Positions 30,441-54,812 of a DNA stretch of 64,000 nt are shown here, in pieces (within the stretch, counting starts at the first letter, position 1; each line of letters starts with the position of its first letter). Position numbers and translations under genes: made by a program. The notes below the pieces were generated by a model that was not told where the DNA came from, ran no database searches, and worked only from the letters and a program-made list of their open reading frames with translations. The stretch is from a virus. The stretch is from positions 45,854 through 109,853 of IMG/VR virus record IMGVR_UViG_3300008624_001193; one strand, written 5' to 3'.

Positions 30441-30447
30441 TATTACC

Positions 30448-31995
30448 TTATTCCCATTCTATTGTTCCTGGTGGCTTAGAAGTTATGTCGTAAACTACTC
30501 TATTTACTCCTGATACATTATTAATAATTTCAGTAGAACATTTACTAAGCACTTCATGTGGTAAATTAAACCAATCAGCAGTCATACCATCTTCACTTGA
30601 GACTGCTCGTAATGCAATAAGATTTTCGTATGTTCTATCATCGCCCATTACACCTACTGTTTTAATAGGTATCAAAACTGCAAATGCTTGCCAAATACCT
30701 TCGATATCACCTAACGTCTTTAAAAATACACTATCTGCCTCACGTAATATTCGTAATCTTTCATGTGTTACTTCGCCCATTATTCGTACTGCTAGTCCTG
30801 GTCCGGGAAATGGCTGGCGGGTTAAAACAGTATCTGGCAACCCTAATTCTTTGCCCAATAATCTTACTTCATCTTTAAATAAATTCCTAAGTGGTTCAAT
30901 TAAAGTAAATTCCATATTGTCGGGTAATCCACCTACATTATGGTGCGACTTAATTGTTGCCGCTATATCTTTTCCTGATTCAATAACATCAGGATACAAT
31001 GTACCTTGTGCTAAAAACTTTGCATCCTTTGTAACATCTTCAAAGCATCTAATAAATTCTCTTCCAATTACTTTTCGTTTAACTTCCGGATCAGTAATGT
31101 TTTCTAATACTTTCCAAAACCTTTGTGTAAAATCATACTTTGTAATGTTTAATCCTAGCTCTTGCATGGATTTCATTATTTCGTTTGCTTCGTTTTTACG
31201 AAGTAACCCTGTATCAATAAAAACACATTTTGACTGTTTACCTATTGCTTTGTGTAATAATGTTCCTACTACTGCGGAATCAACTCCTCCGCTAATTGCA
31301 GTTATAACTTCTCCATCACCTACTTGTTCTCTTATAGATTTAATAGCATCTTCAATAATATATTTTGAAATCCAATCTTTATCACATTGTGCTACTTTAA
31401 ATAAAAAGTTTCTAAATACATCTCTTCCAATAAGTGAATGTACTACTTCCGGATGAAATTGTACTCCGTAAATAGGTTTTTCTTTATGCTTAACCGCCGC
31501 TATAACATTGTTAGAAGATCTTGCTATAATATCAAATACTTTTGGTAATGTTTGTATTTCATCTGCATGACTCATCCATACTTGGGCTCCTTCTATCCAA
31601 TCTTTGTCACATTCTGCTAATAATGGATCTGGCTTTTCTACGTATATGTTTGCAAGTCCGTATTCGCCTGTGCCACGAATAATTTTTCCGCCTTCTTTGT
31701 GTACTATTTCTTGTAAGCCATAACATATACCTAAAATAGGAATACCTAAGTTTAAAATATCAGGATCTAACTTAGGTGCTTCGGTTTCGTATACACCTGA
31801 TCTGCTTCCTGATAATATTATTGCTTTAGCATTTTTTAATTCTTCTGCTTTAACAGACGGAGCATATATTTTGGAATAAACATTTTGTTCTCTAACTCTC
31901 CTGGCAATGAGTTGTGTATATTGGGCACCAAAATCTATTACTGCTACAGGATTATGTGTGTACTTTGCTCCAAAATCTATTACCGCGACTGTCAT
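30448..31995 (-). CDS. guaA: GMP synthase GuaA with a duplicated N-terminus
   Basis: 515 residues. Aminates XMP to GMP using glutamine. GATase domain with Cys in GICYGLQ and His/Glu in QFHPEVVHS; PP-loop SGGVDSAVV near 234-242; dimerisation domain to PGTIEWE. The first strand VAVIDFGAKYT (3-13) is followed by a second copy VAVIDFGAQYT (17-27), a 14-codon tandem repeat. The second Val is not a start codon, so the duplication is translated. No guaB is seen. Confidence 0.96.
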   Translation of the reverse strand: MTVAVIDFGAKYTHNPVAVIDFGAQYTQLIARRVREQNVYSKIYAPSVKAEELKNAKAIILSGSRSGVYETEAPKLDPDILNLGIPILGICYGLQEIVHKEGGKIIRGTGEYGLANIYVEKPDPLLAECDKDWIEGAQVWMSHADEIQTLPKVFDIIARSSNNVIAAVKHKEKPIYGVQFHPEVVHSLIGRDVFRNFLFKVAQCDKDWISKYIIEDAIKSIREQVGDGEVITAISGGVDSAVVGTLLHKAIGKQSKCVFIDTGLLRKNEANEIMKSMQELGLNITKYDFTQRFWKVLENITDPEVKRKVIGREFIRCFEDVTKDAKFLAQGTLYPDVIESGKDIAATIKSHHNVGGLPDNMEFTLIEPLRNLFKDEVRLLGKELGLPDTVLTRQPFPGPGLAVRIMGEVTHERLRILREADSVFLKTLGDIEGIWQAFAVLIPIKTVGVMGDDRTYENLIALRAVSSEDGMTADWFNLPHEVLSKCSTEIINNVSGVNRVVYDITSKPPGTIEWE

Positions 31996-33161
31996 AATGC
32001 TTTATATCCAATATCCTTTCGATAAAAACTATCTTCCCAATGTATTTTTTCACATATTTGATATGCTTTATTTCGTGCTTCTTGTAATGTTTCTCCTCTA
32101 GCAGTTATATTTAAAACTCTACCACCTTTTGTAATATATCTATCATCTATTTTTTGAGTACCTGCATGAAACACTTGTACATCAGGATCATCTATTTTAT
32201 CTAAACCTTTTATTTCAAATCCCTTACCATATTTTTCTGGATAACCTCCTGAACACATACAAACAGTTATCGCAGATCCATTGTAAAAATTAGGTGCCGG
32301 TAACTCTTTTAATGTACCATTAACACATGCTTCTAAATATGGAGACAAATCACTCTCCATTAACATCATTAATACTTGACATTCAGGATCACCAAAACGT
32401 ACATTGTATTCTATTACATATGGATCTCCATTGCAAATCATTAAACCAATATATAATACACCTCTGTAAGGGATACCTTCTTCTCGCATTCCCCTAAGTG
32501 TTGGTTCGATTATTTCTCTTCTAATTCTTGTGTCTAGTTCATTTGTTATTAATGGTGCTGGTGCGTATGCACCCATTCCTCCTGTGTTAGGTCCAGTATC
32601 TCTTTCACCTACACGTTTATGATCTTGACAATAAGGAAGTACTTTATAATCTTTTCCATCTGTTAATACAAAACAACTTGCTTCGTCGCCTTGTATAAAT
32701 TCTTCTATTAATATTTTATTTGATTTAGACTCAAATTTATTATCAATAAATGTTTGTTGAACATTAATAGCATCCTCTAATGCATCACAAACCGATACAC
32801 CTTTTCCTCCGCATAATCCGTCCTCTTTAATAACAATAGGAAATTTTTCATTAGGACGCATTATTGCTTCTTCTATTGTTGATCGATTATATGTTTCCCA
32901 TCTTGCAGTAGGAATATCATTACGAAGCATAAATTGTTTCGCCCATAATTTACTTGTTTCTAATCGACCCGCAAGTTTACTTGGAGCAAATACTTTTTTA
33001 AGCATACCTTCATAATGCTCAGTAAGTCCGTCTGCTATAGGTTGTTCTGGTCCTATAATAACAAATTCCGAATTTTCTTTAATCGGAATGCTTTCTTTTT
33101 CCAATTTCCAACGTAAGGAATCTTCTCTTCCTCCGTCGCCTATCATAATAGTCGAAATCAT
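31992..33161 (-). CDS. purD: GAR synthetase PurD
   Basis: 389 residues, about 30-40 shorter than usual, mostly from the N domain. Joins glycine to phosphoribosylamine with ATP. GPEQPIADGL, the ATP-grasp KEDGLCGGKGV, and RFGDPECQVLM are typical. Overlaps guaA by four nt. Confidence 0.95.
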   Translation of the reverse strand: MISTIMIGDGGREDSLRWKLEKESIPIKENSEFVIIGPEQPIADGLTEHYEGMLKKVFAPSKLAGRLETSKLWAKQFMLRNDIPTARWETYNRSTIEEAIMRPNEKFPIVIKEDGLCGGKGVSVCDALEDAINVQQTFIDNKFESKSNKILIEEFIQGDEASCFVLTDGKDYKVLPYCQDHKRVGERDTGPNTGGMGAYAPAPLITNELDTRIRREIIEPTLRGMREEGIPYRGVLYIGLMICNGDPYVIEYNVRFGDPECQVLMMLMESDLSPYLEACVNGTLKELPAPNFYNGSAITVCMCSGGYPEKYGKGFEIKGLDKIDDPDVQVFHAGTQKIDDRYITKGGRVLNITARGETLQEARNKAYQICEKIHWEDSFYRKDIGYKAL

Positions 33162-34666
33162 GCTACCTGTTGTTTATATCTGAGTGTGCCTTCTTGTGTA
33201 GGATATTTAGATGTTAAACATGCCATACAAAGTTCACTACTATTTTTATTTAACGCTTTTACCATACCCTCTAACGACAAATATTGTAAACTATCTGCAC
33301 CAAAATCGCTTGCTTTAGGTTTATTAGTACTTGTGTATAATTCTTTTATAGTTGGAAAATCTATTCCATAAAAACAAGGCGAAGTAATAGGAGGACATCC
33401 AATTCGTAAATGTACTTCTTTTGCTCCGCTCCATTCTTTTAAATTTGTTACTAATGCTCGCATTGTTGTACCACGTACAATAGAATCATCTATAAGTATA
33501 ATTTTTTTACCCCGTAATACCTCACGCAAATGTGTAAATTTTAATTGTATATTGTATGTTCTATTTGTATTATCTATAAATGTTCTTCCTATAGAATGAT
33601 TTTTAAGTAAGCCTTGTACAAAAGGTATATGGGTTTCTTGTGCATATTTTGCTCCTGCAACATACGAAGTTTCAGGTACAGGTACTACAATATAATCACC
33701 GTTAAATTTAACTGTTTCTTCTATTGCTAATTGTTTTCCTATATTTTCTCGTACATGATATACAGATTCGCCATCCATTACAGATGCAAGATGCCCAAAA
33801 TAAATCCATTCAAAAAAACAATAACTAGTATTTTTTTTAGAATGTGTTTCTATTAATTTACTTGGACCAGAATAATATAAACTATTACTTGGATATTGTA
33901 AATCCTTATCTATATAACTTTTTACAGTAAAATTATCGCCATCAGCAATAATCATTTCACCGGGTTTCAAATCTGTTGCTTCTATTTGTAAATTAGAGAG
34001 AACTACGCTTTCTGATGTAAAAACTAATATGCCATCATCAGTAACACCATAACACATAGGTTTTAGCCCTAGTGGATCTCTGACAGCAACCATTTTCCCG
34101 TCAGCATTTACAAAGGCAATGTTCCATGATCCGTCAAAATCTTTTAATAACGTTTTAAATATTTCAACAAAGTTTAATTCTTCTTGAGGCTTATGTGATT
34201 GGACTTCACGACTAAGAAAATGCATTATGACTTCTGTATCAGAATCATAAGTCATATTGTAACCTACTTTTTCTAAGCCACTTTTTAGTTTATCATAATT
34301 TGCTAGGTTGCCATTAAAGGCTAAACTAAACCATTTTGATTTTCTACCATGTGGACGTTCAAATGGTTGTGCTAATTGATCTCCATTATCACCACTTGTT
34401 GCATAACGAGTGTGACCTATTGCGGCATGACCACTATAATCTTCTAATAATTTTTTACTTTTATATTGATGGTTGATTTGAAATACTTCGTGTACTTTAC
34501 CATTGTCTTTATGTGTTTGGAGTATTCTCTTTCTATTTTGATTGTAAGAAGTAAGACCGGCACTAAGTTGACCCCGGTGTTGTAAATCTAATAATCCTCT
34601 AACAATGAGGGGGTAAACGTTTTTGGTTTTATCCTTTAACGAATACGCCCCAATAACTCCACACAT
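33158..34666 (-). CDS. purF: Amidophosphoribosyltransferase PurF
   Basis: 502 residues. First committed step: PRPP plus glutamine to phosphoribosylamine. Cys2 is the class II amidotransferase nucleophile with no propeptide; the PRPP loop is ILIDDSIVRGTTM. Cys residues in ELCMACL may mark an Fe-S-type or ancestral site. Confidence 0.96.
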   Translation of the reverse strand: MCGVIGAYSLKDKTKNVYPLIVRGLLDLQHRGQLSAGLTSYNQNRKRILQTHKDNGKVHEVFQINHQYKSKKLLEDYSGHAAIGHTRYATSGDNGDQLAQPFERPHGRKSKWFSLAFNGNLANYDKLKSGLEKVGYNMTYDSDTEVIMHFLSREVQSHKPQEELNFVEIFKTLLKDFDGSWNIAFVNADGKMVAVRDPLGLKPMCYGVTDDGILVFTSESVVLSNLQIEATDLKPGEMIIADGDNFTVKSYIDKDLQYPSNSLYYSGPSKLIETHSKKNTSYCFFEWIYFGHLASVMDGESVYHVRENIGKQLAIEETVKFNGDYIVVPVPETSYVAGAKYAQETHIPFVQGLLKNHSIGRTFIDNTNRTYNIQLKFTHLREVLRGKKIILIDDSIVRGTTMRALVTNLKEWSGAKEVHLRIGCPPITSPCFYGIDFPTIKELYTSTNKPKASDFGADSLQYLSLEGMVKALNKNSSELCMACLTSKYPTQEGTLRYKQQVA

Positions 34667-35899
34667 TTAAAATTGCTCGTCTTCTGTTGACCCTTTAATT
34701 GCACTTAATGTATTACTACCAGTACATACTTGACTTATTTCGTCAAAGTAACCTGCACCTACTTCACGTTGGTGTTTTACTGCTGTAAATCCTAATTCTT
34801 GTGCTTTAAATTCTTTTTGTTGTAAATCTACAAATCCTGTCATACCAGTATTTTTATAATTTAAAGATAAATCAAACATACTATAATTTAAACTATGAAA
34901 ACCTGCGAGTGTAATAAACTGATATGTTACTCCTAGTTCGCCTAGTTCATCTTTGAAATTGCGTATTTCAGTATCGCTTAATTTTGACTTCCAATTAAAT
35001 GATGGTGAACAATTATATGCAAACATTTTATTTGGAAACTCCTTACGAATTTCTGCACAAAATTCCCTGCATTCGCCTATGTCGGGTAAAGATGTTTCCA
35101 TCCAAAGCAAATCACAGTAAGGCGCATATGCAAGTCCTCTTGAAACCGCTTGTGCCATTCCTGCATTTGTTTTATAAAATCCTTCGGTTGTTCTTTCACC
35201 TGTAATAAACGTATGATCATATTCGTCAGCATCAGTTACTAACAATGCACCTGCTAATGAATCTGTTCTTGCAATTAAAACAGTATCAACGCCCATTATA
35301 TCTGCGGCAAGTCTAGAAGCAATAAGTTTTGATACCATTTCTTTAGTAGGTACTAACACTTTACCACCCATGTGTCCGCATTTTTTAGCAGAAGATAATT
35401 GGTCTTCTAAATGCACACCGGCGGCACCGGCTTCAATCATGTCTTTCATTAATTCATGGGCATTAAGGACTCCTCCGAATCCTGATTCCATGTCTGCAAC
35501 AATAGGAAGAAAATAATCTATATCTCCTTCACCTTCCATTGTTTGTATTTGATCTGCACGGATAAACGTATTATTAATTCGTTTTACTACGATTGGTACA
35601 CTATTGGCCGCATATAATGATTGATCTGGATACATCTCCATACTATCATTTGCATCGCCTGCTACTTGCCAACCACTAAGATATACCGAATCTAACCCAG
35701 CCTTTGCTTGTTGCATTGCTTGGTTACCTGTTAATGCACCTAAGGCACTAACGTAAGGTTGATTGTGTAATTTGTGCCATAACTTTTTAGCACCATTTTG
35801 TGCTAATGTATATTCAACTTTAACTGACCCACTTAGTCGCTTTACGTCTGAGTCGGCATATGGTCGGATAATCCCGTCCCATCTATTTTCTTTGCTCAA
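34667..35899 (-). CDS. aceA: Isocitrate lyase AceA
   Basis: 410 residues, near full length (E. coli 434). Splits isocitrate into glyoxylate and succinate. The active-site loop [14 protein letters not shown] (C174) is identical in kind to genuine isocitrate lyase, not methylisocitrate lyase; [10 protein letters not shown] and ADMESGFGG are also conserved. Start is TTG with a perfect AAGGAG ribosome-binding site; there is no nearby ATG. It sits between purC and purF, so it is cotranscribed with purine genes. Glyoxylate can be aminated to glycine, a substrate of PurD. Confidence 0.95.
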
Positions 35900-35910
35900 T
35901 TTTTATCTCC

Positions 35911-36753
35911 TTAAAATTTGCTTGTATACTCTGTCACGATAGCATACTTTCGTTGAACATCAGTTAAATTTTCTCCGTCTCTAAATGATTGTTTATCTAA
36001 TTGTTGTTTTGGATCGCCATGTGGCCATATACGCCAACTATCATTATCTATAACGTCTGCAATAACAATTTCTTTATTTGAATTAATACCTACTTCTATT
36101 TTCATATCTATTAAATCTACATTAACTTTTTTCCATGCTTTTTCTATTGTTTCAAAACATGGTATCATTAATGAATTTCTAATATATTCTAATGTTACAG
36201 GATCTACTACAGGTATTATGTCCATTAATGGTTGCATATCATGTCGTGGTTGCTTAGGAGGATAAAGTAACCACGTTTCATCATGTGGTTCTATTAAAGG
36301 GTCTGTGTATACAGTTTCTGTCCATTCTCCGTTTCGTAGGTATAATTCTCGAGCTTTATCTTCAGAAATCATTTCACCTTTAACTATTGCATGTTTATGA
36401 AAAAATTCAGTTTTTACAGGATCAAATAAATCTGAAGAGGATGCTTGAGGTTCTCGTTTAATATAACTACCATATGGCCTTCTACGTATAACACATTCAA
36501 TAGGAATCATTCTACATTTATCTGCAACAAATGATGTTTCGTCATTTCTGCTTTTATATGCAACTGGTATTCCTTCACGTTTCAGTAACGCAAATACATG
36601 AATTGTCTGGCTTGTTTTATCTTGTGCTACAGGTAGGTCTGCTTGTATTGCGGCATCATTTGCCGTAAGTGAATCTTTTGTTCGTATTCTAACTAAACTT
36701 TTATCATCTAAGGATTCTATTAGTTTAGTTTTACCTTCAATTAGTATTTCCAT
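35911..36753 (-). CDS. purC: SAICAR synthetase PurC
   Basis: 280 residues. Condenses CAIR with aspartate. EGKTKLIES at the start, KSRNDETSFVADKCRMIPIE, and the metal/ATP region VIADVIDNDSWRIWPHGD are conserved. Overlaps the small upstream gene by 17 nt. Confidence 0.94.
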   Translation of the reverse strand: MEILIEGKTKLIESLDDKSLVRIRTKDSLTANDAAIQADLPVAQDKTSQTIHVFALLKREGIPVAYKSRNDETSFVADKCRMIPIECVIRRRPYGSYIKREPQASSSDLFDPVKTEFFHKHAIVKGEMISEDKARELYLRNGEWTETVYTDPLIEPHDETWLLYPPKQPRHDMQPLMDIIPVVDPVTLEYIRNSLMIPCFETIEKAWKKVNVDLIDMKIEVGINSNKEIVIADVIDNDSWRIWPHGDPKQQLDKQSFRDGENLTDVQRKYAIVTEYTSKF

Positions 36754-38417: not shown

Positions 38418-38494
38418 TGGTAGGGATGACTGGATTCGAACCAGCGACCTCTACATCCCAAATGTAGCGTTCTCCCAGACTGAACTACATCCCT
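38418..38494 (-). tRNA. tRNA-Pro (UGG)
   Basis: Acceptor AGGGATG/CATCCCT, anticodon loop TTTGGGA (UGG), T-loop TTCGAAT, discriminator A and encoded CCA. Its first ten nucleotides are the 3' end of the upstream oxygenase gene, whose TAG stop is the tRNA U8-A9-G10. Confidence 0.94.
38485..38494 (-). other. Overlap of an oxygenase stop with tRNA-Pro
   Basis: The codons GGG ATG TAG ending the upstream oxygenase gene are tRNA-Pro acceptor bases plus U8-A9-G10. The same happens at tRNA-Arg (12871-12880). Confidence 0.85.
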
Positions 38495-39087
38495 GGATAA
38501 ACAAAGAATGTGACTGTCAATCTATCAGTTCCTGCGCCTTCGGCACTATGTACCAATTTTGCATTATACATAATCATTCTATTAAATTTATTTTCAATTA
38601 TACTAGTTTTTTCAAAACTAGTTTTATCTATCATATTAACATTTGTTGGCATTTCTGTGCTTCCGTCCCAGCCTGTTTCTTTATGCTTATAAAAACAAGT
38701 ACCTGTATCAGGAGCAGGATTATTATCTAAATAAATTACACCTGCTAGAACTGGATTACCATCTTGATGTATATTTCGTTCATCATTTTTTGTTTGTCGT
38801 TGAAACAATGCATTTATAGTTATATTATCATTTGGTATTAATGCTAATATTTTTTTTTGAAATTCTTTATATATTTTAGGTAAAATATTTTCACATAATA
38901 ATGATCGTTGTCCTGGAAATGTCATTCCTATTTTAAGAATTTCTAATATTTTATTATCATTATCTTCGTCTATTGTTGCTGTATTACTCAACTGATCGCA
39001 ATAATAAAAATCTTGTTTTAATGCTTCTTCTCTAACATTATTAGGGTCATCAAAAAAATTATCATATACAGTAATAATATTTTTCAT
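38485..39087 (-). CDS. 2OG oxygenase-like protein, tandem paralogue 1
   Basis: 200 residues. IHQDGNPVLAGVIYL (H107, D109), GTCFYKHKETGWDG, and MIMYNAKLVHSAEGAG (H180) with R189 form a full iron/2OG site of the DUF6445-like phage group. It is the third member (in transcription order) of a tandem triplet. It ends inside tRNA-Pro. Substrate unknown. Confidence 0.8.
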   Translation of the reverse strand: MKNIITVYDNFFDDPNNVREEALKQDFYYCDQLSNTATIDEDNDNKILEILKIGMTFPGQRSLLCENILPKIYKEFQKKILALIPNDNITINALFQRQTKNDERNIHQDGNPVLAGVIYLDNNPAPDTGTCFYKHKETGWDGSTEMPTNVNMIDKTSFEKTSIIENKFNRMIMYNAKLVHSAEGAGTDRLTVTFFVYPGM

Positions 39088-39605
39088 TTGTACACACCTA
39101 ATATTAAAGTTAATCTTTCATTACCTGCTTCCTCTGCTCTATGTACAAGGTTACCGTTATACATAATCATTCTATTAAATTTATTTTCTATTACACTTGT
39201 TCTGTTAAAATCGGACCCTATTAAAACTTCTATACTATCTGGTTTTTTGGTACTACCATCCCATCCTGTTTCTTTATGAGTATAAAAACCTGTACCACTA
39301 TTTGGCATAGGAGTTTCATCTAAATATACTATACATGTTAAAAATGTATCAACGTCTTGATGTATTTTTCTATAATCATTTTTTCCTTGTTTTTGAAACC
39401 TAGCAGTTATTGTTGAATTTTTAGGTATTAATGGTTCTAAGGACAATTTTAATTCTCTATACATCTCTGGTAAAATATTTTTACATTGGTCTGTTCGTAT
39501 TCCAGGATAATTTCCTAATTGATCAAAGGTTTGTTCTAATGCTTTCTTTCGAATTTCGTTGGGATGCATAAAAAAATCATCGTATACTATTAATCTATAA
39601 TCCAT
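39084..39605 (-). CDS. 2OG oxygenase-like protein, tandem paralogue 2
   Basis: 173 residues, shorter in the N-terminal half than its neighbours. IHQDVDTFLTCIVYLDE (H82, D84), GTGFYTHKETGWDG, MIMYNGNLVHRAE (H155) and R164. ATGA overlap with paralogue 1. Substrate unknown. Confidence 0.8.
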   Translation of the reverse strand: MDYRLIVYDDFFMHPNEIRKKALEQTFDQLGNYPGIRTDQCKNILPEMYRELKLSLEPLIPKNSTITARFQKQGKNDYRKIHQDVDTFLTCIVYLDETPMPNSGTGFYTHKETGWDGSTKKPDSIEVLIGSDFNRTSVIENKFNRMIMYNGNLVHRAEEAGNERLTLILGVYK

Positions 39606-40270
39606 TATGCTAATTTAAATATAAAAGATGTTTGTGTTAATCTACAATTTTCCTTAGTATCCCCAAAACAAGTTCCAGGAGCATGTAATAATTTACTATC
39701 ATATAATACAATTCTATTAAAGGTATTTCCGACTACAGAGTCTACTTCAAAATTATCCTTATTTTGGTCTTGCCTATTCGCAGGATATATATCGTTAAAT
39801 GCTAGATCTGGTACTCTATCTTTGTTTATGCCATTCCATCCTGTCTTTTTATGTGAATAAAATATAGTACCACTATTAGGTCCGGGGTTAGGTGTTAAGT
39901 AAACAATAATGGCCATAATAGGATCTGTATCTTGATGAATACTTTTATTAACATTATCATGATCTTTAGTTTGTAATGTAAAATATGTATCTACTTCTAA
40001 TTTAGTTTCATCACTAAACTTACAATATTGGTTCACAAAAGTTCGAGTATATTCATCTGCTTCAGGTAATATTTTACTAGCTCGTATTGTTCGTTCACCA
40101 CAAAAATTTCCTATTTTAGATATCTCAACAACATCATCATTATCTAATTCTTCTGTTCTAATTGTATCATGCAAATAATCTGCAGGATAAAATTCCTGTT
40201 TTAATAATTTATTTCTAATTAGAAATGGATCTGGGTAAAAATTTTCATATATAATTGAATTTAATCTCAT
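39605..40270 (-). CDS. 2OG oxygenase-like protein, tandem paralogue 3
   Basis: 221 residues. IHQDTDPIMAIIVYL (H112, D114), GTIFYSHKKTGWNG, LLHAPGTCFG (H196) and R210. More diverged than the other two, with an extra insertion before the distal His. Follows tRNA-Thr. Confidence 0.8.
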   Translation of the reverse strand: MRLNSIIYENFYPDPFLIRNKLLKQEFYPADYLHDTIRTEELDNDDVVEISKIGNFCGERTIRASKILPEADEYTRTFVNQYCKFSDETKLEVDTYFTLQTKDHDNVNKSIHQDTDPIMAIIVYLTPNPGPNSGTIFYSHKKTGWNGINKDRVPDLAFNDIYPANRQDQNKDNFEVDSVVGNTFNRIVLYDSKLLHAPGTCFGDTKENCRLTQTSFIFKLA

Positions 40271-41084: not shown

Positions 41085-41113
41085 AGTATAACATCTATAA
41101 TTATTGAAGTCAA
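41085..41113 (-). promoter_or_regulatory. Near-consensus sigma-70 promoter
   Basis: Minus strand TTGACT (41113-41108), 17-bp spacer, TATACT (41090-41085). The TGA in the -35 box is the stop of the upstream oxygenase gene (41110-41772). Confidence 0.75.
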
Positions 41114-41772
41114 TCGGTTAATGGAGGAAAGTTGGGTATATTATCGGAAAAAACAAAATAGTCTCCGTTAAATAACCAACGGTTATAAACATCTTTTATT
41201 TCATTTGTACCATGTAATAGGTATGCAGGAAATAAAAAAAGATCACCTACGATTGGTTGACATTCATATTCATGTCGCCATTCGCAAGTGTATTCAAGGG
41301 CATTCCAAGGAAATAGTCCTTTTGGTCCATTATATATAGGACTTAAAAACCATAAACTAGGGAGAGTACCCTCTAAATGAAAATAATATGTATAACTAAA
41401 TAATGCACCTTCGTGATCATGCAATCCTGAACCTGTACTATTGCCAAAATTTAAGAATGCACTTGTTTTTTTTATTTGTTGGTAGGTTGTATCAATTTGT
41501 AAATCCTTAATAAACTTGTCTGCACTTTCGTCAATAAAGTCAAATACTTCTTTAAAGACAGGATTTTTAAATTCTTTTCCGTATGTAGGTGAGTTGGTCC
41601 AAAACCGTTTTTGAACAGAAGTGTATCCTTTATAATTTACATTTGCCCCATGTTCAAATGGGACATCAGGATCCATTGTTCTTTTGGCTTCGTCTAATAT
41701 TTGTTTATGAAAAGATTTGTCTTTATTAATATTAGTGTGATAAATCTTATGTGGAAATATTTGATGTATCAT
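41110..41772 (-). CDS. Putative 2OG-Fe(II) oxygenase (TIGR02466 type)
   Basis: 220 residues. LHDHEGALFSYTYYFHL (H118, H120), GDLFLFPAYLLHGTNEI (H187) and R198. HxH replaces HxD. The stop codon is inside the -35 box of the following promoter. Substrate unknown. Confidence 0.75.
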   Translation of the reverse strand: MIHQIFPHKIYHTNINKDKSFHKQILDEAKRTMDPDVPFEHGANVNYKGYTSVQKRFWTNSPTYGKEFKNPVFKEVFDFIDESADKFIKDLQIDTTYQQIKKTSAFLNFGNSTGSGLHDHEGALFSYTYYFHLEGTLPSLWFLSPIYNGPKGLFPWNALEYTCEWRHEYECQPIVGDLFLFPAYLLHGTNEIKDVYNRWLFNGDYFVFSDNIPNFPPLTD

Positions 41773-41914: not shown

Positions 41915-42150
41915 TTAAGTTTAAATAGTACTTTTAATTTTGGATTTGTAATATCTGCATATATATAAAATTTCATCAAATGTTCTTGTGGACTATACAT
42001 TTGAACATATCGATAATCTTTATCGTATTTAAATTTTGTATTATCAAACCAAATTCGATATTTTTCTAATAGTTTACTTGCCTTTGCTTGATGCCAAGGT
42101 TCATCATCTGCATTATCAGAGCATATAAAACTAACTAACTTCCGGCGCAC
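41905..42150 (-). CDS. Hypothetical protein, GTG start (81 aa)
   Basis: 81 residues, a basic helix then aromatic beta strands (KYDKDYRYVQMYS, LMKFYIYADI). The start is GTG inside the end of the glutaredoxin gene; no ATG is available. Function unknown. Confidence 0.5.
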   Translation of the reverse strand: MRRKLVSFICSDNADDEPWHQAKASKLLEKYRIWFDNTKFKYDKDYRYVQMYSPQEHLMKFYIYADITNPKLKVLFKLKWL

Positions 42151-42382
42151 CTAATAATCCTACTAAGTCAGGATATCCGCCTTTTAAATATTTCCCTTCA
42201 TATATAATCTGTGGAAATATTTTATATGGTCCGATTTTATTATAGAGGTCCCTTGGTGTTAAATCTTCTCCTACAGTTTGCATAGTAAATTCTATGTTAT
42301 TCTGCTCAAACAATTCTTTTGCCTTATTACAATATGAACAATCTGGTATTTTTACATGTGTGTATAATATTGTTTCACTCAT
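42131..42382 (-). CDS. Glutaredoxin
   Basis: 83 residues. Redox motif CSYC (15-18), cis-Pro in IFPQIIYEG and the C-terminal GGYPDLVGLL match small glutaredoxins. It may supply electrons for phage ribonucleotide reduction or protect iron enzymes; partner not visible. Overlaps the carbamoyltransferase N-part gene by eight nt. Confidence 0.88.
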   Translation of the reverse strand: MSETILYTHVKIPDCSYCNKAKELFEQNNIEFTMQTVGEDLTPRDLYNKIGPYKIFPQIIYEGKYLKGGYPDLVGLLGAPEVS

Positions 42383-43538
42383 TTTCTCTCACTATTTTGT
42401 TTATGTTTTCTTCAAAATTATCTAAATTAAATACAGGACTTGCATTATATATGCTAGTCAGGGGTCGTTTAGTTAAATCTTTACTTTTTGTGTGCCATAG
42501 ATGTTTTGCCGCACCGATTGCAATTCCAGCATCATCGGCAACAGGTTCTATGAATATATTTACATCTGGCGGAAGTTCTTGTGTGTATCTAAAATTTGCC
42601 AAACAATTCAATGCATAACCACCACTAAAACAAATATTCTTGCAAGCATCAAAATCACAATGATCAAATACAAAATTTAAAACTGCATCTTCACTTTCTT
42701 TTTGCATTTTTTTGGCTAAATTTGCATAGTCATGATATTTGTCTTTTATATCTCGCATTTGTCCTCTCTCTAAAAAAGGCACATCTTTTATAATTTCGTT
42801 TAAAGTAAAATCTATTTCAGGTTTAATTTCATATCTAAAATTTTCTCCTAATTTTCCTTCGTCTTTAGTTGGCATTCTATTATATTCATTAAATGATATT
42901 GTGCAACCAAAACTATCATTATATCGTGAAGGAACCCATATATTAAAAAAAGGAGGTAAACTTTCATCTATAGTACCATATGCACTTAGCCCCATAAGTT
43001 TACCATTTTCTAACTCGTCTTCTCCTATTAAATTTGTTATAATAGAATATAATCTAGTTATACCAAACCAATGAGAAGGGTTATGTGCTATGCGATTAAA
43101 ATTAGCAGGATACGATGTTTCAAATATAGTTTCTGTTTCTCTACCTACAAAACTATCTTGTTCTTCTCTATAATCTATTGAACCTTGGGAATCGACTACA
43201 ACAGAATATGCTTCGTCAAACCCTGAATCATAAAAAGCAAGAGAAGCATGACATAAATGATGTTGTCCTGCATAATCTATTGCTTCTGTTTCTGCCATTT
43301 TTTCTGCAAATATTTTCCAGAAATTAGTAGAAAATAATTCTGCAATATCTTCTGTAGGTGATGAATAAGCAACGGCATCTAGTTTACCTAAGGATAAACA
43401 ATGTAATGCGGCTTTCATAGGGTTAGCATCTCGTTTCGTATTAGACAACGATTCTTCTTTAATATAAGATTCGATTTCGCCGTTATTTAATACTACTGCC
43501 TGTGAATCATGTGCAACACCTAATCCTAAAATTCTCAT
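42375..43538 (-). CDS. Carbamoyltransferase, N-terminal (Kae1-like) part
   Basis: 387 residues. NodU/CmcH-type N-domain: GVAHDSQAVVLNNGEI, metal-binding HHLCHASLAFYDSG, and VVDSQGSIDY. Transfers carbamoyl from carbamoyl phosphate to a hydroxyl through a carbamoyl-adenylate. The C-terminal YrdC-like part is coded by a separate gene that lies upstream (43535-44086), overlapping by four nt, so the protein is split and in permuted order. Confidence 0.8.
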   Translation of the reverse strand: MRILGLGVAHDSQAVVLNNGEIESYIKEESLSNTKRDANPMKAALHCLSLGKLDAVAYSSPTEDIAELFSTNFWKIFAEKMAETEAIDYAGQHHLCHASLAFYDSGFDEAYSVVVDSQGSIDYREEQDSFVGRETETIFETSYPANFNRIAHNPSHWFGITRLYSIITNLIGEDELENGKLMGLSAYGTIDESLPPFFNIWVPSRYNDSFGCTISFNEYNRMPTKDEGKLGENFRYEIKPEIDFTLNEIIKDVPFLERGQMRDIKDKYHDYANLAKKMQKESEDAVLNFVFDHCDFDACKNICFSGGYALNCLANFRYTQELPPDVNIFIEPVADDAGIAIGAAKHLWHTKSKDLTKRPLTSIYNASPVFNLDNFEENINKIVRENE

Positions 43539-44086
43539 ACTACTGCCTTTTCTATTTCAGGAAACCAAACAAAATCTAATTTACTATCTAAAAAAACCTC
43601 AATTGCTTTTGCAGGGTTAAACACAATTGGTTGACCGGCTAGATTAAAACTAGTATTGAGTATTAAAGGTATACTAGTCTGATTATAAAATTCATTAATT
43701 AAATCATAGTATAAAGGATTTTGATCCCTATTAACAGTTTGCAATCTACAAGTACCGTCAACATGTATCACTGCTGGTATTTTTTCCCATTTGTCTTCCT
43801 TTACTGGAACAGCATAACTCATAAAAGGCGAGGATTTAAGTCTACCCATTTCAAACCATTCGTGTGCATATTCTTCTAATATACTACATGCAAATGGTCT
43901 GTACCATTCTCTATTTTTAACTTCATTAACTCTATCTTTACCATCTTCCATTCTAGGATCAGCAATAATAGATCTATTACCTAATGCTCTAGGTCCTAAT
44001 TCTAATTTACCTTGAAAAATAGCACCTATTTCTTTATTAATTAATTTACTTACTATATCTTTAATAGTACATCTTAATGTTTCCAT
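43535..44086 (-). CDS. Carbamoyltransferase, C-terminal part
   Basis: 183 residues. LELGPRALGNRSIIADPR and REWYRPFACSILEE are the hallmarks of the carbamoyltransferase C-domain, followed by TSFNLAGQPIVFNP. It precedes the N-part gene in the transcript. The two products probably assemble into one enzyme. Acceptor unknown: glycan, small molecule or modified base are all possible. Confidence 0.82.
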   Translation of the reverse strand: METLRCTIKDIVSKLINKEIGAIFQGKLELGPRALGNRSIIADPRMEDGKDRVNEVKNREWYRPFACSILEEYAHEWFEMGRLKSSPFMSYAVPVKEDKWEKIPAVIHVDGTCRLQTVNRDQNPLYYDLINEFYNQTSIPLILNTSFNLAGQPIVFNPAKAIEVFLDSKLDFVWFPEIEKAVV

Positions 44087-44907
44087 TAGGATCCTAACAT
44101 GCCATCTTCCATATTTTGATCTCTTTTGGCTTGCTCTAATTCCTCTTGTTCTTTATGAGCAATAGAATCTTTATTTGGATCAAAATTAATATAATCTGCA
44201 TTTTCTCTAGTCCACTTTGCATCTTCTAATGCTCCCGCTCTAAGTAATTCTTCAAAAGGTACAGGGTCTCCTTCTTGCTCGATCCGTTCTGCCGTTGGTA
44301 CATCATAATACCAACGAGTTTCGTCAGGCGGGTCTTGTCGTCTTCCGGTAGATATTAAATATTTGTAAACATTGTCCCAATGAGTTACTTTATAAGGATC
44401 TACATCGTGTGCAACATTGTCTTCTTTTCCGTCTTCAACAAAAAGTTGTTCGACAGTATTATTTTCAACTACCATTGCATAACGCCATGATCTTTTGCCG
44501 TATCCCATATTTGATTTATCTACTAACATGCCAATTTTTTCTGTAAATTCTCCATTACCATCTGCTATCCAATCTACTTTAATAACAAAATGGGCCCATA
44601 ACCAAGATTGCATACAGAAACTATCATTTACGCCAATAAAATATATATTTTCTATATCTTTTGTATACATCATATCAAATTGCCCATCATACATTTGCAT
44701 TTGATGTGTACAATTGTCTGTCCATGCTCCAGGAATGCCTACTATTACGCATCTATCTTTGAACATTTTTTCAGAATTCCACTTTTGCCAAAGTCGCGGT
44801 GGTGCTTTATCCCATGCCGCGGCATGTCCAATAGGACCATTAACTCCTACTTCTCTTCTATACATGTCCCAAGTAATAATAGGAAGTGTGTCGCCTTCTT
44901 TAATCAT
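44086..44907 (-). CDS. Peroxiredoxin, Prx5-like, with a C-terminal extension
   Basis: 273 residues. Residues 1-165 are a Prx5-type thioredoxin fold: VIVGIPGAWTDNCT with peroxidatic C66, IYFIGVNDSFCMQSWLWA, and DKSNMGYGKRSWRYAMVVE. About 100 extra residues, polar and acidic, follow. Removes peroxides; in this neighbourhood it could protect flavin halogenases. TAATG junction with the carbamoyltransferase part. Confidence 0.82.
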   Translation of the reverse strand: MIKEGDTLPIITWDMYRREVGVNGPIGHAAAWDKAPPRLWQKWNSEKMFKDRCVIVGIPGAWTDNCTHQMQMYDGQFDMMYTKDIENIYFIGVNDSFCMQSWLWAHFVIKVDWIADGNGEFTEKIGMLVDKSNMGYGKRSWRYAMVVENNTVEQLFVEDGKEDNVAHDVDPYKVTHWDNVYKYLISTGRRQDPPDETRWYYDVPTAERIEQEGDPVPFEELLRAGALEDAKWTRENADYINFDPNKDSIAHKEQEELEQAKRDQNMEDGMLGS

Positions 44908-44918
44908 AAAATATCTCC

Positions 44919-46553
44919 TTAATGTCGATTATAAACATAATCTAATAATTCTTTATGTGTAATTGCATTTTCTGCAACTTCGTTTTTTATTTCTGTACAC
45001 GTATCATAAACTAGTTTACCTATTTTATCTAACTTAAAATTATGTAACTCTCTTTGAGCATTATGAGCTCCTGCTAATCCTGATCTTTTACCTACTGTTG
45101 CCCATGAACCAATTCCAAAAGGTTTTGAAGGATCTGACAAATATTCGTAACCTCTAGGAGGCCGATGGGCCCATGTCCATATTTTTTCTTTAAGGGATTC
45201 GGATATATTATCATCATTTTTAAAATATTTCCAATAGTCTGAATCCTGCCTTTTTTGAAGATGGCAAAAACAAATATAATCTCTTGTATGTTCAAATGCA
45301 CTATTTACTGTATCATTATAATGGTTTACGTCTCGCCCTTCAAATTCCATTGCTTTATTAAACATCGGAAAAAATACTTGTGTTAAAAATCCTAAGGATA
45401 AAATTAATGCACTACCATCTAATGGTTCTAAAAATCCTTCCGATAATCCTACTGCCATACAATTTTTAACCCATGATCGTTTGTATCTACCTGGTGTCCA
45501 CGATAATTGCTTACCTATTGAAGGATTGTACCCTTTATTATTCCAATGTTCTAATTGTTCTTTTTGAATTGTTTCTTTGTCAACAAATTTATCTGAATAA
45601 ACATACCCTGTTCCAATTCTATCTCGTAAAGGTATTTTAAACATCCATCCGTATTTTTGTGCATCCAGTATTGTAAAAACATTAGGATCTTCTCCTTCTT
45701 TATATTTTACACCACCATCAATTAGTGATACAGAATTTTGTGGAATATAGTTTGAATAATCTATCCATTCTTCGTTGAATATATCGCCTAAAATTAATCG
45801 TCTAAATCCAGTACAATCAAAAAAGAAATCACCTTTTATTTTTCTTCCAGTATCTAATTTTAATTCTGTTAAATTTCCTGTTTTTCTATTTTGCTTCCAA
45901 TTTACTACTTTACCATCTATTACTGTTATCTGTCGTTGGTTACATATTTTCTTTAAAAAATCTACAGATAAATTAGCATCCATATGCATACCCATTGTAG
46001 CAGAAAGGTCTTGGCCTAACATGCTTTCTAAACGAAGATTGCCTTCTTTTATTTTTTGGATTTGGGGTCTCCCATTTTCTTGTGTTATAAAAGGTACTTT
46101 ATTTTCTAAAACTAAATTATCAAATCCATATTCGTTACAATCTTTATTAGCAAGATAGTACAAAATATCAAGACCCAAATCTAAATAAGGATTATAAAAA
46201 TCAAAATTATTTGTTCGTGTATGTTCTATTTTTAAATCTAACATAACAGATAGTGCATGAAGCATATGATGGTATGATTCTCCTTCATAATTCCAATTGT
46301 CAAACCTTGCACTCATTTTAAATGTTCCGTTTGATTCTTTCATAAATTTATAAGGATCTATTCCTACTCTGTTTAGAAGTATTGGAACATTTTGAGCAGT
46401 CGATTCACCGACACCAATTGTACCTATACTAGAAGATTCTATAACTGTAACAGTTAACTCTGGCCATAAATTTGTACCAAACGCATATCTAACCAATAAT
46501 GCTGTCATATATCCGGAAAACCCTCCGCCTACAATTACTATATCTTTTATCAT
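44919..46553 (-). CDS. Flavin-dependent tryptophan halogenase-like (1)
   Basis: 544 residues. FAD motif VGGGFSG (8-14), GVGEST (47-52), catalytic-type K79 (FKMSARFDNW) and GWMFKIPLRDRIGTGYVYSD. The WxWxIP motif reads WMFKIP, with Phe in place of the second Trp. Family enzymes chlorinate or brominate tryptophan or other substrates. Substrate unknown. Confidence 0.88.
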   Translation of the reverse strand: MIKDIVIVGGGFSGYMTALLVRYAFGTNLWPELTVTVIESSSIGTIGVGESTAQNVPILLNRVGIDPYKFMKESNGTFKMSARFDNWNYEGESYHHMLHALSVMLDLKIEHTRTNNFDFYNPYLDLGLDILYYLANKDCNEYGFDNLVLENKVPFITQENGRPQIQKIKEGNLRLESMLGQDLSATMGMHMDANLSVDFLKKICNQRQITVIDGKVVNWKQNRKTGNLTELKLDTGRKIKGDFFFDCTGFRRLILGDIFNEEWIDYSNYIPQNSVSLIDGGVKYKEGEDPNVFTILDAQKYGWMFKIPLRDRIGTGYVYSDKFVDKETIQKEQLEHWNNKGYNPSIGKQLSWTPGRYKRSWVKNCMAVGLSEGFLEPLDGSALILSLGFLTQVFFPMFNKAMEFEGRDVNHYNDTVNSAFEHTRDYICFCHLQKRQDSDYWKYFKNDDNISESLKEKIWTWAHRPPRGYEYLSDPSKPFGIGSWATVGKRSGLAGAHNAQRELHNFKLDKIGKLVYDTCTEIKNEVAENAITHKELLDYVYNRH

Positions 46554-47726: not shown

Positions 47727-48093
47727 GTAACTCCTTTTCTTCTATTGAACCATCTGAGTATTCGTACTCTACAAACTCTTTGCCGTCACGTGTAAATTTA
47801 CGTTCAGCAATTATTTCCCATTCTTTTTCTTCTATTACAGTTTGTTTTTTTGTTTTTGTACCAGTGATTTTTTCTTCTAAATCATCTAGTGTTTTAACTT
47901 CTTCTTTAGGTGCAGTTAGTTTTTCTTTATAAAATTCTTTTTGCACTTCTTGGGCAGGTACTTCTATTTCGCCACCAGGACCAAGAATATCTCCTCTAGC
48001 ATTCATAGGTATGTTACTAACGGCAACAGAAGTATCATTGGCTGCAATTAATGCGGCCATATTAATTTCTTTTCCCCTTGCTGTTTTTGTCAT
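47701..48093 (-). CDS. Hypothetical phage protein (130 aa)
   Basis: 130 residues: an Ala/Gly-rich first third (AALIAANDTSVAVSNIPM), a Glu/Lys helical middle and a short strand end. Probably conserved next to the co-chaperonin in related phages. Function unknown. Confidence 0.55.
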   Translation of the reverse strand: MTKTARGKEINMAALIAANDTSVAVSNIPMNARGDILGPGGEIEVPAQEVQKEFYKEKLTAPKEEVKTLDDLEEKITGTKTKKQTVIEEKEWEIIAERKFTRDGKEFVEYEYSDGSIEEKELHASKTTKK

Positions 48094-48614
48094 TTTAAAA
48101 ACTCCTTTATGTTTAAGTCATGGTGTAAACTATTTACTTTATGCACACCTAACAGATATAAACAATAACTAGCAACAGAACTACCTCTGCCTACACCCCA
48201 AACTATGTTATTTTCTCGCATAAAGTCTACAAAAAATATCATAAAACGTAATACATTTTTCATATTGCGTTCTTCAAACATTTGTATTTCTAATTCTACT
48301 CTATCTATTTCTTTTTGTGTTTTTGTTAATTCACGTATGTAATTATAAGGATTTATATTTTTATATTTGTCCGGTATGAACCAATTGTCTAAACACTTTT
48401 GTATATATGCTTTTTTATCTTCGGTACTGCTTGTGAATTGCAGTTTAGGCATATCCAAATCATAATTATCTATTATACTATTATATATCTCTAAATCTTC
48501 CGAGCGTTTACACTTAACATTTGTTAAATCAGACCCTTGATATAATAAGTCAAAAACTGCTTTATCATCGAGTATAATCTCGCCGTTATTATCTATATAA
48601 TTGTCGTACCACAT
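48090..48614 (-). CDS. DnaE-like fragment
   Basis: 174 residues. The C-terminal VWGVGRGSSVASYCLYLLGV with a following DLNIKEFLK resembles the start of the palm domain of DNA polymerase III alpha (GPGRGSxxGSLVAYxLGIT...). The catalytic Asp triplet region and everything after it are absent, so it is not a polymerase. It could interfere with or borrow host clamp/primosome contacts, or be a relic. Confidence 0.6.
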   Translation of the reverse strand: MWYDNYIDNNGEIILDDKAVFDLLYQGSDLTNVKCKRSEDLEIYNSIIDNYDLDMPKLQFTSSTEDKKAYIQKCLDNWFIPDKYKNINPYNYIRELTKTQKEIDRVELEIQMFEERNMKNVLRFMIFFVDFMRENNIVWGVGRGSSVASYCLYLLGVHKVNSLHHDLNIKEFLK

Positions 48615-50218: not shown

Positions 50219-50631
50219 ACATCTCCGTCTAATCTATTTTCGCTACGTTCAGCGGTAAAATGTCCTTCAGGAAACCTTGCTTTAAGTTTATTCGCATTAA
50301 TTTCTAATACTTCATTAGGATCAACATTTAATGCTGTACAAGCATTGGCCCAATACCATGCTACATCACCTAATTCTTTTATTAGTCTTGTGCGGATTCC
50401 CTCATCTAAAGTTTTTCCTTGGAACAAAACTTTTTTCACTACCTCAGTGAACTCACCGCCCTCTGATACTAAACCAAATGCGGCTGTTAATAGTCTTGGT
50501 ATATTAATATTACCTTGTATATGTGCATCGGATGCTTCTAATTCTGCTAGTCTATGCAAAAAAGAAGTATACACTTTTGATTCGTCACTTGTAATAGAAT
50601 CTACAAATTTTCGATATTCATCTAATTTCAT
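50215..50631 (-). CDS. mazG: MazG-like nucleotide pyrophosphohydrolase
   Basis: 138 residues from the ATG overlapping the halogenase stop (ATGA). SEGGEFTEVVKKVLFQGK (metal-binding Glu helix) and ELGDVAWYWAN with the later NANKLKARFPEG are MazG hallmarks. Phage MazG hydrolyses noncanonical or alarmone nucleotides; in a phage with purine synthesis it may tune nucleotide pools. Confidence 0.9.
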   Translation of the reverse strand: MKLDEYRKFVDSITSDESKVYTSFLHRLAELEASDAHIQGNINIPRLLTAAFGLVSEGGEFTEVVKKVLFQGKTLDEGIRTRLIKELGDVAWYWANACTALNVDPNEVLEINANKLKARFPEGHFTAERSENRLDGDV

Positions 50632-52283
50632 TCTTCTCCATTGAATATATTTTGTTTTAACCATTCATAATGAGTAGGTAAGGTTTTTACATACTTTAAA
50701 TTTTTTGCTCTTTTTTCTGCTAACCATGTATCTAAACTACGTAACCATTCTTTTGTCTTATTAAAATCAGCATTTTGTCTAACATGTTGTTCTTTTATAT
50801 CTCGTAAATATAATGGATTAAAATCCATTCCTGCCATAATAACACTAAGGGCTTCCTGAGGTTGAAAACTTTGATATGGATTTTCTAAAAACATATGCGG
50901 ACCTAATACTTTATCTTTATAATAATTTAATGCTTCACATGCTGGAAAAATATTTCCATCATATTGTATTTCATTAGTAACATATTCCCAATAATCTGTG
51001 TCATTTCTTTTACAAAAGGCATAATGAAACATTATAAAAGATGCAAATGCCATATCTGCATGTATCCACGAATTAAAACTTTGTTTTAAATATCCTGTTA
51101 CATTTTCACCATTATCGCCCATTTCTAGAGCATTACAAATATTTGTTATATTTTTATGGGTAAGTAATAATCCTGTACTTTCTAATGGTTCAATAAATCC
51201 ACAACTTAATCCTACTGCTATAACATTTTTACACCAAGGTTCTTGCCTAATACCAGTTTTCATATCTATATGTAAAATATCTCGTATTGGTTCTTTTCCT
51301 GCAATAGGTTTTCTATGCTTTAACAAATATTCTCTAAATTCTTTTTCTGCTTCGTCCTTGGAAATAAAATCAGAACAATAAACATATCCTGTACCAATTC
51401 TATCATATAAAGGAATATTCCAACACCAACCAGCATTCATTGTGGTTGCATTAGTATTAGTTTCCATTTCTACATTTTTATCTGTATATGAAATAGATGT
51501 TGCTAATGCTTTATCATTAATTAATATATCACTAAATGAATTAAAAGGAACATTTAAAACTTTTTCTTGAAGAACACTATTAAAACCTGTACAATCAACA
51601 AAAAGATCTGCAGAATATTTTTCTTCACTTCCTTCTAATTTTAAATAATCTATATAACCATTTTCTTTTTGTACTGCATTTGTGTAGGTACCTAAAACAT
51701 GTTTAACTCCTCGCGGTTCACAATAATGTAACCTCAACCACTCTCCAAATTTAGAGGCGTCAAAATGATACGCCCTATCTGTTGCAACTCCACTACGCAT
51801 TCCTGCAAGAGATGTTGTTTGAAAATTATAAAAAAACTTATCTTCATTTAAAGTAAATTTATTATGATCTATTAATTCAATTGTATCCCAAAGAAACTCA
51901 GCATATTCTGTAGGAGGAGTATTACATAGTAATTTTCGTTGAAACCATTGATCTTTTCTTTTAAGAGGGGATTGTTCTTCTACATATCTAGGATAAAAAC
52001 CAAAGGGATAATGAAAGCGAGTTCCTTTACCATCCCAATTTGTAAAATCTATTGATAATTTATATGTTGCTTTACAAAAAGGCATCCAGTCGGTGTCTTT
52101 TATGTCTAACATTTTTAAAAAATCATTTATTTCTGCTAAAGTGCTTTCGCCAACACCTATGGTGTTTATATTTGCAGATTCAATTAACGTAATATCTTTA
52201 TTTGGGAATCTACTAATAAGACCAGCGGCAGTCATCCAACCGGATGATCCTCCGCCTAATATTATAATTTTATTGATTTGCAT
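50628..52283 (-). CDS. Flavin-dependent tryptophan halogenase-like (2)
   Basis: 551 residues. FAD motif LGGGSSG (9-15), GVGEST (43-48), K75 (YKLSIDFTNW) and a canonical WCWNIP. All key halogenase features are intact. Substrate unknown. Confidence 0.9.
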   Translation of the reverse strand: MQINKIIILGGGSSGWMTAAGLISRFPNKDITLIESANINTIGVGESTLAEINDFLKMLDIKDTDWMPFCKATYKLSIDFTNWDGKGTRFHYPFGFYPRYVEEQSPLKRKDQWFQRKLLCNTPPTEYAEFLWDTIELIDHNKFTLNEDKFFYNFQTTSLAGMRSGVATDRAYHFDASKFGEWLRLHYCEPRGVKHVLGTYTNAVQKENGYIDYLKLEGSEEKYSADLFVDCTGFNSVLQEKVLNVPFNSFSDILINDKALATSISYTDKNVEMETNTNATTMNAGWCWNIPLYDRIGTGYVYCSDFISKDEAEKEFREYLLKHRKPIAGKEPIRDILHIDMKTGIRQEPWCKNVIAVGLSCGFIEPLESTGLLLTHKNITNICNALEMGDNGENVTGYLKQSFNSWIHADMAFASFIMFHYAFCKRNDTDYWEYVTNEIQYDGNIFPACEALNYYKDKVLGPHMFLENPYQSFQPQEALSVIMAGMDFNPLYLRDIKEQHVRQNADFNKTKEWLRSLDTWLAEKRAKNLKYVKTLPTHYEWLKQNIFNGEE

Positions 52284-54122: not shown

Positions 54123-54812
54123 TTAAAACCAATAATATTTATCGCCTATAAAAAAGGTTTGTGTAATTCTAAACTTTTCTAAATAATCTTTATGTTTAAC
54201 TTCTGCCGAATGGGGAATTCTTTGTTGATATAATATCATAGTATTTGGTACCATTTTTGATTCATATATACGTTGTCCGTCTATTGAACTTGTATAAAAT
54301 CCTGTTCCTCCTGCACATTCTTCTAATAAATTTAAATATATAACTCCTGCAAACATACCTGGAGATGGTGGTTGTTTATCTCTGTGAGGCAATAAAGATA
54401 CTAATGGTTGTGTTGCTGTTGTACGTTTTTGAATATGTTTTGTGTTTAATATGCCTGTTGTAAAAGGAAAATATATTGGTTTAGTATGTGGACCTCCCCA
54501 TTCTTCAGAAAAATGTTTTAATAAAACATCATTTATTAATGTCCATAATGGAGTTTGGTCGCAAATATAATGAGCTCTATGACCAGGATAATTTGTATGT
54601 TTATCTACATTTCTGGCAAACATACAAGGAAGTTCTAATGCAAATTGTCTTACAGAAATATAATCTTCATATACATCAGGAATTTCTGCTACTTTGAGAG
54701 GAAATCTATCTTCTATATCTATATCAATTATTTTAATGTCACGTTCTTTGTTTATATCAACATCAAAAACATTACTATCGATAATTTTTGGTATAGATGG
54801 TTGTTCTATCAT
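54123..54812 (-). CDS. 2OG oxygenase-like protein (229 aa)
   Basis: 229 residues. LLPHRDKQPPSPGMFAGVIY (H143, D145), GGTGFYTS, RIPHSAEVK (H201) and R215. Belongs to the same DUF6445-like type as the 38.5-40.3 kb triplet. It sits upstream of iscU in the transcript. Substrate unknown. Confidence 0.8.
   Translation of the reverse strand: MIEQPSIPKIIDSNVFDVDINKERDIKIIDIDIEDRFPLKVAEIPDVYEDYISVRQFALELPCMFARNVDKHTNYPGHRAHYICDQTPLWTLINDVLLKHFSEEWGGPHTKPIYFPFTTGILNTKHIQKRTTATQPLVSLLPHRDKQPPSPGMFAGVIYLNLLEECAGGTGFYTSSIDGQRIYESKMVPNTMILYQQRIPHSAEVKHKDYLEKFRITQTFFIGDKYYWF
54136..54143 (-). promoter_or_regulatory. Late-promoter-like motif GATAAATA before iscU
   Basis: One mismatch to TATAAATA, 30 bp before the iscU ATG, the same spacing as the holin motif. 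It lies in the last codons of the oxygenase gene. Confidence 0.3.

What the first reader, a model, noticed from the sequence alone, without database searches (positions are those of the whole stretch)
42375..44086. Carbamoyltransferase split in two and in permuted gene order
The C-terminal domain gene comes first in the transcript and the N-terminal domain gene second, overlapping by four nt. The usual enzyme is one chain, N then C. This looks like a circular-permutation-like split.
Basis: seen in the sequence. Interest (0 to 1): 0.6.

Follow-up and report, generated by a model that had tools for sequence, protein, structure and literature searches.

The report
Split carbamoyltransferase, reversed gene order
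A marine virus carries a normally single-chain, two-domain enzyme (a carbamoyltransferase) as two separate overlapping genes in reversed order, and this recurs in many marine viruses, some with several copies of one half per copy of the other.

Summary
Confirmed: on the minus strand a YrdC-like/Carbam_trans_C gene (44086..43535, 183 aa) comes first and a Kae1-like/Carbam_trans_N gene (43538..42375, 387 aa) second, sharing ATGA. Both keep every catalytic residue checked, evolve under purifying selection (dN/dS about 0.15) and stay in the same seven-gene order in five contigs (81-100% identity). It is not misassembly, frameshift or decay.

It most likely encodes a two-subunit class III O-carbamoyltransferase: C makes carbamoyl-AMP, N passes the carbamoyl to an acceptor. 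Complex formation and substrate are inferred.

It is not unique. C-before-N pairs occur in isolated cyanophages (S-RIM44, Sf-FP1, S-SCSM1) and many viral contigs; a single origin is rejected (AU p=0.00014). At one cyanophage locus (thyX-phoH) I found N-C>N, N>C>N, C>N and arrays up to C>N>N>C>N>N. There the reversed order looks like downstream N duplication, fission and loss of the first N, not circular permutation. For the window lineage the route is unresolved (sister pair is N>C). In clusters with unequal counts, N outnumbers C 14 to 0. I found no single-chain C-N protein, no convincing split in sampled cellular genomes, and no paper describing it.

The parts
43535..44086 (-). C gene, first in the transcript: stand-alone YrdC-like (Carbam_trans_C) protein, 183 aa; proposed carbamoyl-AMP-forming subunit
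   Evidence: PF16861 E 7e-62; AF2 mean pLDDT 92, TM 0.88-0.92 to the YrdC-like domain of VtdB/TobZ/GdmN, then TsaC2, HypF
42375..43538 (-). N gene, second in the transcript: stand-alone Kae1-like (Carbam_trans_N) protein, 387 aa; proposed acceptor-binding transferase subunit
   Evidence: PF02543 E 4.5e-23; AF2 mean pLDDT 80.8, best hit TobZ E 2e-19, then GdmN, TsaD/Kae1
43535..43538 (-). ATGA overlap: start of N gene on stop of C gene; likely translational coupling (inferred)
   Evidence: sequence; identical in L001, L003, L004, L005
44084..44088 (-). TAATG overlap: peroxiredoxin-like stop on C gene start
   Evidence: sequence
43916..43918 (-). C gene Lys57, equivalent of TobZ K443 (solved as K443A variant)
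   Evidence: invariant in survey; TobZ numbering from alignments
43649..43651 (-). C gene Ser146 in NTSFN, equivalent of TobZ S530 (solved as S530A variant)
43260..43262 (-). N gene His93, iron ligand (GdmN H133)
   Evidence: alignment; GdmN ligands PMC9633730
43248..43250 (-). N gene His97, iron ligand (GdmN H137)
43191..43193 (-). N gene Asp116, iron ligand (GdmN D156)
42531..42533 (-). N gene Asp336, iron ligand (GdmN D333)
44086..44907 (-). upstream peroxiredoxin-like gene (Redoxin PF08534), same transcript direction
   Evidence: conserved neighbour in L001-L005
44919..46553 (-). upstream tryptophan-halogenase-family gene
   Evidence: PF04820 E 4e-85; conserved neighbour
42131..42382 (-). 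downstream glutaredoxin-like gene overlapping the N gene end
   Evidence: PF00462 E 1.6e-8; conserved neighbour

Best explanation
The two genes are the two subunits of one class III (TobZ/NodU/GdmN-type) O-carbamoyltransferase, probably made from one mRNA with translational coupling. The first subunit (C, YrdC-like) turns carbamoyl phosphate and ATP into carbamoyl-AMP. The second (N, Kae1-like, iron site H93/H97/D116/D336, base H10) takes carbamoyl-AMP and transfers the carbamoyl to a hydroxyl acceptor. Because carbamoyl-AMP is expected to be labile, the subunits probably form a complex like the two domains of TobZ. Shown here: order, overlap geometry, complete folds, intact catalytic residues, purifying selection, co-divergence of the halves. 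Inferred: activity, complex formation, acceptor. The order C then N follows the reaction order and the domain order of HypF; it arose more than once in phages.
For: Domain and profile matches; each half is predicted as a complete catalytic domain with its best PDB matches to TobZ/GdmN/VtdB; iron ligands kept in 78 of 79 split N halves, and in the other two-part case the sequence is cut by a contig end (74 match at all ten sites checked); 56 of 62 split C halves identical at 22 signature sites; dN/dS 0.15-0.17 for both halves against L004/L005; ATGA junction and seven-gene neighbourhood conserved; N and C distances co-vary over 41 split pairs (Mantel r 0.82, 0 of 5000 permutations); window N and C both have L137 as sister; domain roles from GdmN structures (PMC9633730).
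Against: No biochemical data on any split form. Co-divergence is also expected from shared phage ancestry. The N model is only moderately confident (pLDDT 80.8, residues 209-239 below 50). The complex could not be modelled with the tools. The acceptor is unknown.
Confidence: 0.78

Rival explanations
1. The two proteins act in sequence without a stable complex, as TsaC and TsaD do in t6A synthesis: C releases carbamoyl-AMP, which N or several N proteins pick up.
For: C alone resembles stand-alone TsaC/YrdC and N resembles TsaD/Kae1; N copies outnumber C copies in 14 of 207 complete clusters, never the reverse.
Against: Nearly all split pairs are adjacent and many overlap; carbamoyl-AMP is expected to be unstable in water; N and C co-diverge.
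Confidence: 0.15
2. The order arose by relocation or circular permutation of one ancestral gene in the window lineage, independent of the duplication route seen elsewhere. (A rival about origin, not function.)
For: Sister pair L137 is already split but N>C at a different genomic place; N>C and C>N orders interchange within one clade.
Against: No permuted single-chain form found; the duplication and loss series is directly visible at thyX-phoH.
Confidence: 0.35
3. The acceptor is 5-hydroxymethylcytosine in phage DNA or nucleotides, as for the phage enzyme found by MetaGPA.
For: Phage carbamoyltransferases can do this (PMC8670742); many split pairs lie beside thyX.
Against: No PF00303 or ThyX in the 110-kb source record (record may be incomplete); the MetaGPA link is to the ThyA family, not ThyX; fused relatives sit with sugar kinases and isomerases.
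Confidence: 0.08
4. Decaying remnants of a once fused enzyme.
For: None beyond the split itself.
Against: Catalytic residues intact and dN/dS about 0.15 in both halves.
Confidence: 0.03
5. Assembly artefact, or a programmed frameshift that joins the halves.
For: Frames overlap by four nt.
Against: Same junction in independent contigs, same order in isolated phage genomes; no slippery site; ATGA is a usual start-stop overlap.
Confidence: 0.01

Closest known systems
Class III O-carbamoyltransferases (TobZ, GdmN, VtdB, NovN, NodU/NolO; Pfam PF02543 + PF16861)
   Same: Both domains, folds, iron ligands, catalytic Lys and Ser
   Different: Known ones are one chain, N (Kae1-like) then C (YrdC-like); here two genes, C first
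Phage 'Nol-like carbamoyltransferase' (phrog_1601; cyanophages P-SSM2, S-SSM7, S-CAM8, P-RSM4)
   Same: Closest sequence family, marine T4-like phages, similar neighbours in some (halogenase, 2OG oxygenase)
   Different: These are single-chain N-C; phrog_20469 (181 positions) is a C-only family
Split pairs in cyanophages S-RIM44, Sf-FP1, S-SCSM1 (annotated as two or four carbamoyltransferases)
   Same: Same C-then-N order in adjacent or overlapping genes
   Different: Separate origin on the N tree; sit between thyX and phoH
5-hydroxymethylcytosine carbamoyltransferase (MetaGPA, eLife 2021, PMC8670742)
   Same: Phage-derived enzyme of the same family, uses carbamoyl phosphate and ATP
   Different: Single 63-kDa chain next to a thymidylate synthase-family gene; acceptor not shown here
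HypF (class II carbamoyltransferase)
   Same: YrdC-like domain before Kae1-like domain, carbamoyl-AMP intermediate
   Different: One chain with further domains; acceptor is HypE cysteine; weaker structural match
TsaC/Sua5 and TsaD/Kae1 (t6A synthesis)
   Same: Two separate proteins, adenylate maker and transferase
   Different: Use threonyl-carbamoyl-AMP and tRNA; only distant structural similarity

Membership tests
Class III O-carbamoyltransferase (TobZ/GdmN/NodU) | Kae1-like domain PF02543 with His-His-Asp-Asp iron site | tested here: met
   H93, H97, D116, D336
Class III O-carbamoyltransferase (TobZ/GdmN/NodU) | YrdC-like domain PF16861 with catalytic residues (TobZ K443, S530) | tested here: met
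   K57, S146
Class III O-carbamoyltransferase (TobZ/GdmN/NodU) | Both domains in one chain, N then C | tested here: not met
   two genes, C first; so a split variant rather than a standard member
Class III O-carbamoyltransferase (TobZ/GdmN/NodU) | Carbamoyl transfer from carbamoyl phosphate and ATP to a hydroxyl | not testable with these tools
   needs an enzyme assay
HypF | YrdC-like before Kae1-like domain | tested here: met
   only as gene order
HypF | Acylphosphatase and zinc-finger domains in the chain | tested here: not met
   no such domains
TsaC + TsaD | Closest relatives are TsaC and TsaD proteins | tested here: not met
   best matches are class III carbamoyltransferases
5hmC carbamoyltransferase | Linked ThyA-family hydroxymethylase gene | tested here: not met
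   no PF00303 in the 110-kb record (record may be incomplete)
5hmC carbamoyltransferase | Activity on 5hmC | not testable with these tools
   needs an enzyme assay
Circular permutation | A single chain with the domain order reversed | tested here: not met
   no C-N ORF found among the surveyed loci

The most novel reading that the evidence does not exclude
Marine phages have turned a fused enzyme into a modular system: one carbamoyl-AMP-making subunit (C) serves one or several acceptor-specific transferase subunits (N), encoded together in variable order and number (C>N, N>C>N, C>N>N>C>N>N), so that one activating subunit supports carbamoylation of several substrates. The window pair is the minimal form of such a system.
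Probability: 0.35. Interest if true: 0.68.

Novelty: new variant of a known kind. Interest (0 to 1): 0.52.

Why it matters
Class III carbamoyltransferases are known as single chains. Repeated natural fission and order reversal, with likely intermediates surviving at one syntenic phage locus, makes it directly testable how two-domain enzymes come apart and whether one activating domain can be shared by several transferases. It also warns annotators that two or four neighbouring 'carbamoyltransferase' genes in cyanophages may be subunits of one enzyme rather than duplicates, and it offers natural split parts for making carbamoylated compounds.

Tried and rejected
Misassembly and frameshift fusion (rejected: independent contigs, isolated phages, no slippery site). 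Pseudogene (rejected: dN/dS and residues). Single-chain permuted form (none found). One origin of C-before-N (all C>[N] rows as one clade rejected, AU p 0.00014; window pair plus the main split clade, p 0.011; both groups were named after seeing the tree). Split forms in cellular genomes: 194 genomes of the phylum of a Scytonema locus had only ORFs of 489 aa or more; in 299 genomes of the phylum of a Bradyrhizobium locus (match list truncated) the two short ORFs examined were a contig end and a short N-C ORF. A smaller AU test did not finish. The MetaGPA residues (TobZ W408, G421, R423) are I23, G36, R38 here, but the paper text does not give the letters of the modified group, so they say nothing on the acceptor. 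Paper searches found no description of the split, and the S-SCSM1 genome paper does not mention carbamoyl in its main text; only open-licence papers are searchable.

Full report
What is there. The window lies in a 109,853-base virus record. On the minus strand the order is tryptophan-halogenase-family gene (46553..44919), peroxiredoxin-like gene (44907..44086), C gene (44086..43535), N gene (43538..42375), glutaredoxin-like gene (42382..42131), then a small ORF and a 2OG oxygenase. The peroxiredoxin stop and C start share TAATG, the C stop and N start share ATGA, and the N end overlaps the glutaredoxin start. The C gene is Carbam_trans_C (PF16861), the N gene Carbam_trans_N (PF02543), and the two cover complementary parts of the phage family phrog_1601.

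It is conserved and looks functional. Five contigs from five metagenome datasets carry the same seven genes in the same order at 67-100% protein identity, with the same ATGA where read. Against L004 and L005, dN/dS is 0.16-0.17 for N and 0.15 for C. The halves keep the iron ligands, the base His and the catalytic Lys and Ser known from TobZ and GdmN. AlphaFold2 gives a complete YrdC-like domain for C (pLDDT 92; TM 0.88-0.92 to VtdB, TobZ, GdmN) and a Kae1-like domain for N (pLDDT 80.8; best match TobZ), so the split falls at the domain boundary.

It recurs. A survey of virus loci (classified) gave, after removing many repeats, 183 N-C, 22 C>N, 19 N>C, 6 N-C>N-C, 5 N-C>N, 4 N>C>N, 2 C>N>C>N, and one each of C>N>N>C>N, C>N>N>C>N>N, N-C>N>C and a few others. 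These are counts in a seeded search, not prevalences. No ORF reads C-N. Isolated cyanophages with C>N are S-RIM44, Sf-FP1 and S-SCSM1 (two pairs in a row); P-SSM2, P-RSM4, S-CAM8, S-CAM1 and S-SSM7 carry fused genes. In samples of cellular genomes I found no convincing split.

How the order arose. In the N tree C-before-N appears in at least three places, and holding all C>[N] rows as one clade is rejected (p 0.00014). At one syntenic place, thyX-[carbamoyltransferase]-phoH, the loci show N-C>N (3), N>C>N (3), C>N (17, some near-identical), C>N>C>N (2), C>N>N>C>N and C>N>N>C>N>N, counting loci with at least one of the two flanks. In one clade the first N of N-C>N and N>C>N loci and the second N of the same loci form sister groups (98*), and the N of four C>N loci falls in the second group (100*). 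The C/N junction is ATGA in N-C>N, N>C>N and some C>N alike. The simplest reading is duplication of N downstream, fission of N-C, and loss of the first N. The tree is unrooted, so direction is inferred. The window lineage is different: its N and C both have L137 as sister, which is split in N>C order at another locus, and joining it with the main split clade is disfavoured (p 0.011). Its route to C>N is open.

How it probably works. In GdmN the YrdC-like domain forms carbamoyl-AMP from carbamoyl phosphate and ATP, and the Kae1-like domain transfers the carbamoyl (PMC9633730). I infer the same division between the two proteins, with translational coupling giving balanced synthesis and assembly. 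N and C distances across 41 split pairs correlate (r 0.82), as expected for partners but also from shared descent. N halves diverge more than C halves (mean distance 0.63 against 0.41), and in 14 of 207 complete clusters N outnumbers C, never the reverse (a few of these N genes stand apart from a fused gene in the same locus). This fits a shared activating subunit with acceptor-specific transferases; it is not shown.

What it is like. It works like a class III O-carbamoyltransferase but fails the one-chain, N-then-C feature, so it is a split, reordered variant. The order matches HypF and the reaction sequence, but HypF's other domains are missing. A 5hmC acceptor, as in PMC8670742, is possible but unsupported: no ThyA- or ThyX-family gene is in the record. 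The papers I could search do not describe the split; the S-SCSM1 genome paper does not mention it.

Verdict.

Noticed in passing
L281:1896-8014, L314:1903-6751: Arrays C>N>N>C>N>N and C>N>N>C>N of separate carbamoyltransferase halves between thyX and phoH.
   Followed up: partly
L034:2732-6122, L026:3756-8415, L044, L051, L081, L176: A fused N-C carbamoyltransferase followed by one or two extra stand-alone N (Kae1-like) genes with intact iron ligands; two of the extra N (in L044 and L176) lack the conserved Lys of GKxMG.
   Followed up: partly
L023:4028-4103 (S-RIM44, KX349294.1): The annotated start of the second carbamoyltransferase gene (4103) is probably 25 codons too late; a conserved start MRILGIN lies at 4028.
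   Followed up: no
window 44919-46553, 50628-52283, 57517-59094: Three different tryptophan-halogenase-family genes in one 64-kb phage window.
   Followed up: partly
window 48090-48614: A short ORF (174 aa) matching the start of the DNA polymerase III alpha NTPase domain; no other match to this family in the 110-kb record, so perhaps a fragment or split polymerase.
   Followed up: partly
window 38485-40270, 41110-41772, 54123-54812, 59974-61856: Many 2OG-Fe(II) oxygenase or DUF6445-like genes, several in tandem.
   Followed up: no
window 28893-36753: Run of metabolic genes (purM-like, glutamine amidotransferase/NAD synthetase-like, purC-like).
   Followed up: no
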